A stretch of DNA of 50,712 nucleotides from Muribaculaceae bacterium (GTDB taxonomy: Bacteria; Bacteroidota; Bacteroidia; Bacteroidales; Muribaculaceae), in contig JAFQKI010000019.1 in assembly GCA_017396945.1 (NCBI GenBank), positions 1-50,712 of the forward strand, given 5' to 3'. A program made the position numbers and the translations under genes. Positions within the stretch are counted from its first letter, which is position 1, and the number at the start of each line of letters is the position of its first letter. Shown here in pieces: positions 31,751-50,182 of this stretch. The notes beneath the pieces are model-generated. The model was given only the letters and a program-made list of their open reading frames with translations. It did not search any database and was not told the origin of the DNA.

Positions 31751-31781
31751 TTGCTGAAACCGAAAAAAATGCGTACCTTTG
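31751..31781 (+). promoter_or_regulatory. Promoter of the SRP RNA gene
   Basis: TTG (31751-31753), 20 bp, TACCTTTG (31774-31781, perfect). The RNA's first paired base (31787) follows 6 bp later. Confidence 0.8.
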
Positions 31782-31786
31782 CAGTC

Positions 31787-31883
31787 GGGTAAGTCCTATA
31801 CGACCAGCTCCCCGAGAACTCCGCCAGGTCTTGATCGAAGCAACGGTATCGGGTTGTAGCGGTGCGATGTAGTAAGCTTACCC
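31787..31883 (+). ncRNA. ffs: Signal recognition particle RNA (small, 4.5S type)
   Basis: About 97 nt. The ends pair as GGGTAAG (31787-31793) with CTTACCC (31877-31883), and the apical SRP core is present: GCCAGGTC... then GAAGCAACGGT, corresponding to the conserved asymmetric and symmetric loops (CCAGGTC...GAAGCA) bound by Ffh. A T7 run (31884-31890) follows as an intrinsic terminator and a strong promoter precedes. It directs inner-membrane proteins to SecYEG with Ffh and FtsY. The exact 5' end may be a few bases earlier. Confidence 0.9.
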
Positions 31884-31890
31884 TTTTTTT
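31884..31890 (+). terminator. T-run ending the SRP RNA
   Basis: Seven T directly after the closing helix of the SRP RNA hairpin; tatD begins 26 bp later. Confidence 0.75.
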
Positions 31891-48981: not shown

Positions 48982-49055
48982 GGTCCAGTAGCTCAGCTGG
49001 ATAGAGCAACAGCCTTCTAAGCTGTGGGTCGTGGGTTCGAATCCCGCCTGGATCA
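48982..49055 (+). tRNA. tRNA-Arg (anticodon TCT)
   Basis: 74-nt cloverleaf. Acceptor GGTCCAG pairs with CTGGATC (one G-T pair), the D-loop AGCTCAGCTGGATAGAGC is normal, the anticodon arm ACAGC-CTTCTAA-GCTGT exposes TCT, and the T-arm GTGGGTTCGAATCCCGC is canonical. Discriminator A at 49055; CCA is not encoded. It reads AGA (and probably AGG) codons. Confidence 0.96.
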
Positions 49056-49071
49056 CTCAAAAAACAGAACG

Positions 49072-49117: not shown

Positions 49118-49149
49118 TTTGGTGATATTGATAAAAATCTGTAATTTTG
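49118..49149 (+). promoter_or_regulatory. Promoter of the structured RNA
   Basis: TTTG (49118-49121), 20 bp, TAATTTTG (49142-49149), both boxes perfect; start expected near 49155. No ORF longer than a few codons follows on this strand before 49499. Confidence 0.75.
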
Positions 49150-49155
49150 TCATTG

Positions 49156-49447
49156 CTCAGTAGCCCGGTGGGGCATGTGGGCTTTTGTTTAAAATAAAAG
49201 GCGTTTATTGGACGCTTTCTTCTGGTCTCAGAAACTTCGCAAACTTTTGAACCTATCGGAAGAAGTGGCAACATAGACGCTCATGGTGATGTTTTATATG
49301 TCGCTCGTTTCCATGTAACCAATGGAGACAAGAGATGTAATATACATCATGGCGTGGGCTGGCTGAGTTGCTTATCTTGATAGGTGGGCAATGCGAAGGC
49401 CCTGAGACCGGGATAGGCAGAAAATACAGACTCCCATGCCTTTTTTT
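49156..49447 (+). ncRNA. Candidate large structured non-coding RNA
   Basis: About 290 nt between a perfect promoter and a T7 run (49441-49447), with no coding sequence. Helices found by eye: P1 49172-49181/49432-49440; hairpin 49197-49204/49212-49218; long-range P2 49220-49231/49402-49413 (12 bp including two G-T pairs); 49234-49238/49262-49266; a long imperfect hairpin 49287-49350 with apical pairs 49311-49314/49322-49325; and 49368-49377/49382-49391. All are nested, giving a multibranched fold closed near its ends. SRP RNA is elsewhere in the window, and the RNase P (GAGGAAAGTCC) and tmRNA (tRNA-like ends) signatures are missing. 6S RNA or the Bacteroidales-1 motif are possible identities; I cannot confirm either. 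Confidence 0.6.
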
Positions 49448-49498
49448 GTATTATTTTGAGCCTAAATCCGGGGAGGCTATAAGGGGTGTAAAATTTTT

Positions 49499-50182
49499 AT
49501 GATCAAAAAAATGTTGAAAATCCCATGCGCATTAACGGAGATGGCGTACGGTGTGCTTATTGTAATTGTTGCTTTTTATTCATCATGCTCTTCGGAAAAT
49601 AAAAAAGAAGAAGTTTCGCCCAAAGTAACTATTGAAAAGACTGTTGCAGATTACTTAAAGAACCAAATGAAAAATCCTGATTCATTTAAAATTGAATCGA
49701 TAGAAATTAGAAAGGACACATTGCCACCATATTTAACGGATGAAATGTTATCAATTGCTGAAGATTTTAATGAAGCAGTTGACGAAGTTGATCGATATAA
49801 AGATCGTAGTTATCTTTGGGCGGAAGAAAAATTAGAGGCAAGTATTAATTTTAGGACTCAGACGGAGATACTTAAATCGGCTTATTCTGTCGCAATGGAG
49901 TCGGGAGAAAGTGTTGTGGAATATGTAGCGTATGTAAAATATTCTGGGACAAACGCAATGGGTGGAACCGTTTCAAATAGAGCGATTGTTATAGTTGACA
50001 TTGATAGCCCTAATAATGTCTTAGGTTCATTCTCGGTAGATGAAGATTTTATAATGCAGATTTACGCTATAAAATTGGTTGGAACAGATTTTAAATTTGA
50101 ACTAAAACAAAATCGGTATGGTAAATACGAAACAGATGGGCTACCCTATATCGAGCAATTCATTTTTGGTGGAGCAATTTAG
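49499..50182 (+). CDS. Unrecognised putative lipoprotein, 227 aa
   Basis: No family recognised. The N-terminus is hydrophobic with a Cys at 30 (AFYSSCSSENKKEE), which looks like a lipoprotein signal; ATGs at codons 5 and 15 are alternative starts. The mature part is acidic and mixed alpha/beta: a helix KTVADYLKNQMKNPDSFKIESIEI, a charged EDFNEAVDEVDRYKDR region, then strands (EYVAYVKYSGTNAMGGTVSNRAIVIVDI). The DYLKNQMKNPDSF motif resembles small domains that begin bacterial periplasmic proteins of unknown role. It is visibly A+T-richer than the surrounding core genes, lies between the structured RNA and a terminator, and may be an accessory gene. Confidence 0.7.
   Translation: MIKKMLKIPCALTEMAYGVLIVIVAFYSSCSSENKKEEVSPKVTIEKTVADYLKNQMKNPDSFKIESIEIRKDTLPPYLTDEMLSIAEDFNEAVDEVDRYKDRSYLWAEEKLEASINFRTQTEILKSAYSVAMESGESVVEYVAYVKYSGTNAMGGTVSNRAIVIVDIDSPNNVLGSFSVDEDFIMQIYAIKLVGTDFKFELKQNRYGKYETDGLPYIEQFIFGGAI

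What the first reader, a model, noticed from the sequence alone, without database searches (positions are those of the whole stretch)
49118..49447. Candidate undescribed ~290-nt structured RNA next to tRNA-Arg
Seen: a TTTG-N20-TAATTTTG promoter, a gene-free stretch with several nested helices, including a 12-bp long-range pairing (49220-49231 with 49402-49413), and a closing helix right before a T7 run. Known: this promoter/T-run framing is how free-standing Bacteroidetes ncRNAs look. Inference: a stable, non-coding transcript. I could not match it to RNase P, tmRNA or SRP RNA; 6S or Bacteroidales-1 remain possible and would make it a known class.
Basis: partly seen in the sequence, partly recalled or inferred. 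Interest (0 to 1): 0.75.

Follow-up and report, generated by a model that had tools for sequence, protein, structure and literature searches.

The report
Portable RNA switch before bacterial genes
A 300-letter stretch of RNA with an intricate knotted fold sits in front of many unrelated genes in gut bacteria, in up to about twenty places per genome, and looks like an undescribed on/off switch that can be swapped between genes.

Summary
In detail: window 49155-49447 is a conserved structured RNA. But it is not a free-standing RNA tied to tRNA-Arg. It is one copy of a large family with no Rfam 15 match. A model of its 3' domain hits 262 of 297 sampled genomes of the window's family, 24 genomes from other families of the order, and none of 246 others sampled across the phylum; rich genomes hold 12-21 matches. 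Cognate-versus-noncognate tests on up to 132 copies support a fold of two hairpin arms cross-linked by four further pairings. It has its own promoter and a U-tract, yet an ATG-started ORF follows within 120 nt in 94 of 142 copies, against 21 of 133 in the divergent direction. Each arm of the terminal helix has a second partner supported by covariation: the transcript's 5' end, and a hairpin about 23 nt before the start codon. I read it as a cis-acting attenuator/antiterminator leader, swappable between genes. Its signal is unknown; expression and termination are untested.

The parts
49118..49149 (+). Promoter: -33 TTTG (49118-49121) and -7 TAATTTTG (49142-49149)
   Evidence: TANNTTTG upstream in 115 of 131 copies versus 8 of 131 in 130 nt downstream
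49155..49166 (+). L0: 5'-end strand GCTCAGTAGCCC, pairs with 49356-49367 (helix P0), competing with terminal helix P6
   Evidence: z -13.6 (control -1.0); nt 5-32 after the -7 box z -13.9, nt 33-60 z -1.4 (n=111); coordinates
49201..49280 (+). 5' arm of the core: P1 49201-49208 x 49273-49280; P2 49216-49222 x 49259-49265; hairpin P3a 49232-49247 with loop 49235-49241
   Evidence: P1 z -7.4, P2 z -12.0 (n=125), P3a z -8.6 (n=132)
49224..49409 (+). Cross-arm helix P3: 49224-49231 x 49402-49409
   Evidence: z -38.7, n=132; z -32.7, n=93 non-redundant
49252..49384 (+). Cross-arm helix P12: 49252-49257 x 49379-49384
   Evidence: z -36.5, n=132; z -30.7, n=93
49235..49398 (+). Kissing-loop P4: CTTCGCA 49235-49241 x TGCGAAG 49392-49398
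   Evidence: z -11.8; 76 copies TTCGCA with GCGAAG, 53 CTCGCA-like with GCGAGA, 0 crossed, 3 other, of 132 (the loop was also the parser's anchor)
49268..49371 (+). Cross-arm helix P9: GCAAC 49268-49272 x GTTGC 49367-49371
   Evidence: z -3.2, the weakest; GCAAAC/GTTTGC in L012 and L015 (by eye)
49287..49349 (+). P5: variable hairpin between the two arms (49287-49300 x 49338-49349)
   Evidence: z -14.5
49351..49440 (+). 3' arm: P6 49351-49358 x 49433-49440; P7 49370-49376 x 49412-49418; P8 49387-49389 x 49399-49401 (P8 by eye). P6/P7 domain is model R1
   Evidence: 97.3% of cells paired, 8 of 16 pairs with two-sided changes in the 23 copies behind R1; P6 z -12.5, P7 z -12.1
49427..49435 (+). 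Tail CAGACTCCC, overlapping the P6 3' arm; pairs with the P13 loop
   Evidence: tail versus 100 nt downstream z -14.4; versus five other segments -1.3 to +3.6
49441..49447 (+). U-tract after P6: intrinsic-terminator-like end
   Evidence: U-run of 5 or more in 103 of 150 copies versus 1 of 150 thirty nt further on
49459..49478 (+). P13 hairpin with loop GGGGAGGCT (49470-49478), ending 20 nt before the start codon
   Evidence: flanking arms z -4.8, n=107; best tail-paired segment to ORF start median 23 nt, IQR 16.5-28.5, n=115
49499..50182 (+). Downstream gene: 227-aa protein, lipoprotein-like by eye
   Evidence: 3 of 149 family genomes (own included) have a homolog, and the two other homologs (45% and 28% identity) have no model hit within their loci

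Best explanation
A cis-acting 5' leader RNA that controls the gene behind it by strand exchange. Transcription would start a few nt after the -7 box. The 5'-end strand L0 can pair with the 5' arm of helix P6 and its junction (P0). A compact core folds from two hairpin arms cross-linked by P9, P12, P3 and the kissing loop P4. If the core and P6 form, P6 plus the U-tract stops RNA polymerase (OFF), leaving a discrete RNA of about 290 nt. If P0 holds the P6 5' arm, polymerase reads through (ON), and the freed 3' arm pairs with hairpin P13 just before the start codon, locking that state or tuning translation. The core would be the sensor for an unknown ligand, protein or RNA. Shown by computation: the helices, the alternative partners, promoter, U-tract and gene position. 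Inferred: the start site, termination, which state is ON, and sensing.
For: Cognate pairing beats shuffled pairing for P3 (z -38.7), P12 (-36.5) and tail x downstream (-14.4), while two wrong-segment controls give -0.3 and +2.0; kissing loop P4 -11.8. On 93 non-redundant copies P3, P12, P13, P0, P1 and P2 stay between -32.7 and -6.6. P0: z -13.6, control -1.0, confined to nt 5-32 after the -7 box. The shared parts co-vary with the alternative partners too: P6 5' arm x leader z -5.0, P6 3' arm x downstream z -3.9, n=93. U-tract in 103 of 150; -7 box upstream 115 of 131, downstream 8 of 131. ATG-started downstream ORF in 94 of 142 versus 21 of 133 divergent and 164 of 710 random. Gene paralogs 92% identical over 420 nt from the ATG have leaders only 50% identical, so the leader is a module.
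Against: No expression or termination data. P6 encloses 74 nt, unusual for an intrinsic terminator, and 47 of 150 copies lack a U-run of 5. P13 pairs in transcript made after the termination point, so it cannot itself decide termination. Non-cognate tail-downstream pairs are also fairly stable (mean -9.1 versus -11.7 kcal/mol), so single loci prove little; the tail without the P6 arm gives only z -0.6. That P0 duplexes cover the P6 5' arm (112 of 114) is no evidence by itself: non-cognate ones do so in 254 of 259. A loose test for a downstream ORF (60 aa within 200 nt: 135 of 150) is also met by 462 of 710 random positions. The 126 downstream proteins scanned share no function (69 Pfam families). 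16 of 20 rechecked RNA-less family genomes had no hit even with laxer filters, so nothing essential depends on it.
Confidence: 0.58

Rival explanations
1. Trans-acting sRNA: the terminated RNA is the product, and its tail (CAGACUCCC) base-pairs with target mRNAs near their start codons, the neighbouring gene included, much as multi-copy FopS sRNAs do in Bacteroides.
For: Own promoter and U-tract; non-cognate tail-downstream pairs are still fairly stable. FopS is a multi-copy sRNA family binding near start codons (PMC11697453, abstract and passages).
Against: Cognate downstream pairing is better than non-cognate, and a -7 box before the gene is rare (8 of 131), so most messages would carry the RNA in cis. 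A 290-nt knotted core is not needed for a seed. FopS RNAs are about 65-70 nt.
Confidence: 0.2
2. Mobile or selfish RNA element: the RNA recognises its own flanks (L0 and P13) with the two sides of the P6/P7 internal loop and spreads between genes, loosely like a bridge RNA or an intron's exon-binding sequences (analogy recalled).
For: Patchy presence within a genus, leader swapped at the P13/ATG boundary, gene homologs without RNA, both loop sides pair with the flanks.
Against: Promoter, U-tract and start-codon spacing are kept as one unit, which random insertion would not give. No recombinase or other enzyme was seen to recur beside it in the 25 loci (by eye) or among 126 downstream proteins. 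No blastn match in plasmid or phage records and 4 pattern hits in viral contigs.
Confidence: 0.08
3. Autoregulatory leader of the small Cro/C1-like HTH protein that often follows it, with the HTH protein as the factor for all copies.
For: About 15 of the 135 ORFs look like this HTH family by eye, and two of the three copies in the window's genome precede one (read by eye).
Against: The HTH family is found in 9 of 16 RNA-less and 9 of 16 RNA-rich genomes, and only 6 of 30 fetched HTH loci have the RNA.
Confidence: 0.06

Closest known systems
Transcription-attenuating riboswitch or protein-sensing leader RNAs (general kind; recalled)
   Same: 5' leader position, pseudoknotted conserved core, terminator-like helix with competing alternative pairings
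   Different: No Rfam class matches; both terminator arms have alternative partners, one at the transcript's 5' end and one before the start codon; up to 21 matches per genome, before unrelated genes
FopS sRNA family of Bacteroides (PMC11697453; abstract and passages seen)
   Same: Multi-copy RNA in Bacteroidales with pairing near start codons
   Different: FopS are about 65-70 nt and act in trans on SusC-type mRNAs; this RNA is about 290 nt, knotted and cis-linked
Bacteroidales-1 (RF01693), 6S / 6S-Flavo, Bacteroid-trp
   Same: Bacteroidetes structured RNAs (table of PMC2864571, passage seen)
   Different: None matches at E up to 10 on the window copy nor at E up to 0.1 on 20 other loci
HMP2_1881 (PMC8040213; passages and one section read)
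   Same: 108-bp Bacteroidetes candidate near radical SAM genes, expressed at all 13 sites those authors found; size and neighbours resemble our 3' domain
   Different: Cannot be compared: its sequence is not in the text open here. If identical, part of the element was listed before, as a 108-bp motif

Membership tests
Riboswitch / regulated leader RNA | Lies in the 5' leader of a co-directional gene | tested here: met
   ATG-started ORF within 120 nt in 94 of 142 copies versus 21 of 133 and 164 of 710 controls; -7 box upstream in 115 of 131, downstream 8 of 131. Not met in every copy
Riboswitch / regulated leader RNA | Conserved structured core supported by covariation | tested here: met
Riboswitch / regulated leader RNA | Mutually exclusive expression platform | tested here: met
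   by sequence only: both P6 arms co-vary with a second partner (z -5.0 and -3.9)
Riboswitch / regulated leader RNA | Direct binding of a ligand that changes expression | not testable with these tools
   no ligand or expression data
Intrinsic-terminator attenuator | GC-rich helix followed by a U-tract | tested here: met
   103 of 150 with 5 or more U in a row versus 1 of 150 control; termination itself untested, loop of 74 nt atypical
6S RNA / 6S-Flavo | Covariance-model match | tested here: not met
Bacteroidales-1 | Covariance-model match | tested here: not met
FopS sRNA | 65-70 nt sRNA | tested here: not met
   predicted length about 290 nt against 65-70 nt
FopS sRNA | R1 seed sequence | not tested
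   seed letters not compared
Bridge RNA / self-splicing intron | Linked recombinase, reverse transcriptase or endonuclease, or demonstrated excision | tested here: inconclusive
   no recurrent enzyme seen in the loci read; excision untested

The most novel reading that the evidence does not exclude
A new class of large sensor RNA: the cross-linked core binds one common signal (a second messenger, a stress metabolite or a protein) and switches a scattered set of accessory, often surface, genes across Bacteroidales by three-way strand exchange, with regulons growing by moving the leader onto new genes.
Probability: 0.4. Interest if true: 0.9.

Novelty: new variant of a known kind. Interest (0 to 1): 0.8.

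Why it matters
It is a large, heavily cross-linked RNA with no match in Rfam, and it is common: most sampled genomes of the window's family carry it, some with more than ten copies. If it senses a signal, it would reveal a regulon of accessory genes that gene-based annotation cannot see, and a signal that gut Bacteroidales use. Leader-swapping would also be a case of regulation spread by moving an RNA.

Tried and rejected
Rfam by gathering score and E<=10 and on 20 further loci: no match on the RNA. Conservation at the tRNA-Arg site: rejected. Two homologs of the window's downstream gene carry no RNA. Plasmids and phage records by blastn with the window copy: no match; viral contigs: 4 pattern hits in 2.9 million contigs, contexts not read. 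A closing helix between leader and tail: no covariation. HTH protein as partner: no co-occurrence. A coherent downstream function: not found. A first test of P2 with badly placed windows gave z -1.4, and P1 -5.9; wider windows gave -12.0 and -7.4. A pairwise identity table was useless because shuffled sequence scored 75%; replaced. The same call added the test of P4.

Rows dropped before counts: L013 and the second halves L025, L028; L018 and L023 from model R1; 8 of the 88 loci then held (L013 and second handles on the same places) not given; L154 (cut off); there 3 duplicates and 6 short-flank loci of 159, leaving 150; 18 of 150 by the anchor parser; 7 of 132 for odd spacing; 14 of 125 without a -7 box; 9 of 135 downstream proteins before A2; 8 of 150 with under 400 nt downstream.

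Full report
What is there. The window segment has a Bacteroidetes-type promoter (49118-49149; consensus recalled), a gene-free stretch that folds far better than shuffles (z -5.78) and a T7 run at 49441-49447. Rfam 15 has nothing for it.

It is a family. blastn found 27 further matching places in the 41 genomes searched; two pairs are halves of one copy and one (G040) is not a copy; 15 of 41 genomes, own included, had a match. From 23 of the 25 copies I built a model of the 3' domain only (R1, 91 positions, 16 pairs). R1 hits 262 of 297 genomes of the window's family, own included (178 of 204 of those at least 90% complete; 28 of 30 genera), 28 of 247 in the order (own, 3 more of the family, 24 from other families) and, of 247 across the phylum, the own genome alone (all three with stricter filters). 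In 15 genomes chosen as rich, 12 to 21 matches each; in the richest, 2 pairs among 16 matches fetched are near-identical over kilobases, probably assembly duplicates. Named carriers include Paraprevotella clara (9 matches), Bacteroides caecigallinarum (5), Xylanibacter rarus (3), B. bouchesdurhonensis (2) and Prevotella ihumii (1). Of 20 family genomes without a hit, 16 stayed without one under laxer filters and 4 gave weak hits (E 2.7e-4 to 0.0037).

The fold. I located the RNA in 159 loci and kept 150 with flanks. For each proposed helix I compared the duplex energy of strands from the same copy with strands dealt among copies. P3 z -38.7, P12 z -36.5, with wrong-segment controls of +2.0 and -0.3 (132 of 150 copies parsed). 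P5 -14.5, P6 -12.5, P7 -12.1, P3a -8.6, P9 -3.2; P2 -12.0, P1 -7.4, controls +0.7 and +1.5 (n=125). The kissing loop P4 gives -11.8: 76 copies have TTCGCA with GCGAAG, 53 a CTCGCA-like loop with GCGAGA, none is crossed, 3 fit neither. On 93 non-redundant copies P3 is -32.7 and P12 -30.7. R1 was built only from the 3' domain, so P1, P2, P3, P12, P4, P0 and P13 were not modelled in advance as pairs. The result is two side-by-side arms, P1-P2-P3a and P6-P7-P8, joined by P9, by P12 and P3, and by P4.

Where it sits. 115 of 131 copies have TANNTTTG upstream and 8 of 131 in the 130 nt downstream; 103 of 150 have a U-run of five or more right after P6, against 1 of 150 thirty nt further on. A loose ORF test is met by 135 of 150 but also by 462 of 710 random positions; the strict one (ATG within 120 nt; 100 aa, or 50 aa running off the locus) is met by 94 of 142 against 21 of 133 in the divergent direction and 164 of 710 at random. 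So the RNA ends in a terminator-like element, yet the next gene seems to depend on its promoter.

Two exchanges. The transcript's first part (nt 5-32 after the -7 box) pairs with the P6 5' arm and its junction (z -13.9; nt 33-60 -1.4). The P6 3' arm's tail pairs with a hairpin beyond the U-tract, about 23 nt before the start codon (z -14.4; five other segments between -1.3 and +3.6; spacing and hairpin arms z -4.8). Taken alone, the P6 5' arm co-varies with the leader (z -5.0) and the P6 3' arm with the downstream stretch (z -3.9); the tail without the arm does not (z -0.6). Each arm of the terminator helix therefore has a second partner supported by covariation. That P0 duplexes cover the arm is not evidence by itself: cognate 112 of 114, non-cognate 254 of 259. 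This is the basis for the attenuator/antiterminator reading; which state is ON, and that termination happens at all, are inferences.

What it controls. The 126 downstream proteins scanned hit 69 Pfam families, at most 5 members each; NCBIfam's commonest is a Cys-rich radical SAM target peptide, 6 members. By a crude test, signal-peptide-like proteins make 47 of 82 downstream ORFs of 150 aa or more against 177 of 507 other ORFs (p 2e-4), and 58 of all 135 (the background holds spurious ORFs). The RNA is portable: in one genome two gene copies 92% identical over 420 nt from the ATG have leaders 50% identical, while one of those leaders is 73% identical to that of a gene with a different product (one clear case). 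Two homologs of the window's downstream gene have no RNA, and tRNA-Arg is an accidental neighbour.

Is it in print? Searches of the open PMC library and Rfam 15 gave no description in the listings and passages seen. I read passages or single sections, never a whole text, of PMC11109978, PMC8040213, PMC7366714, PMC10994844, PMC11697453 and PMC2864571. HMP2_1881 of PMC8040213 may be a fragment of it; that could not be checked. Most subscription papers and all bioRxiv preprints are outside that library.

Noticed in passing
31780-31887 (+): Bacteroidales small SRP RNA (RF04183, 105.5 bits).
   Followed up: no
after tRNA-Arg 48982-49056, and L210-L219: The stretch downstream of dapA and tRNA-Arg differs among most of the same-genus loci read: a variable spot.
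   Followed up: partly
L006, L009, L019, L045, L054, L114, L127, L141, L149: Copies precede or lie near small Cys-rich peptides with an SRRDFFKKAAK-type N-terminus (6 of 126 downstream proteins hit TIGR04117, radical SAM targets), some beside an HTH gene.
   Followed up: partly
G282 and G285 copies: A number of copies lie within a few hundred bases of contig ends, and copies within G282 resemble each other, as if the element were a repeat that breaks assemblies and expands by lineage. Not quantified.
   Followed up: partly
L288-L291: Four IMG/VR viral contigs carry the RNA pattern; whether these are phages or host fragments was not read.
   Followed up: no
49201-49215: The P1 5' strand can also form a local hairpin (GCGT..ACGC), excluding P1, in many copies: a possible third alternative pairing (by eye, untested).
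   Followed up: no
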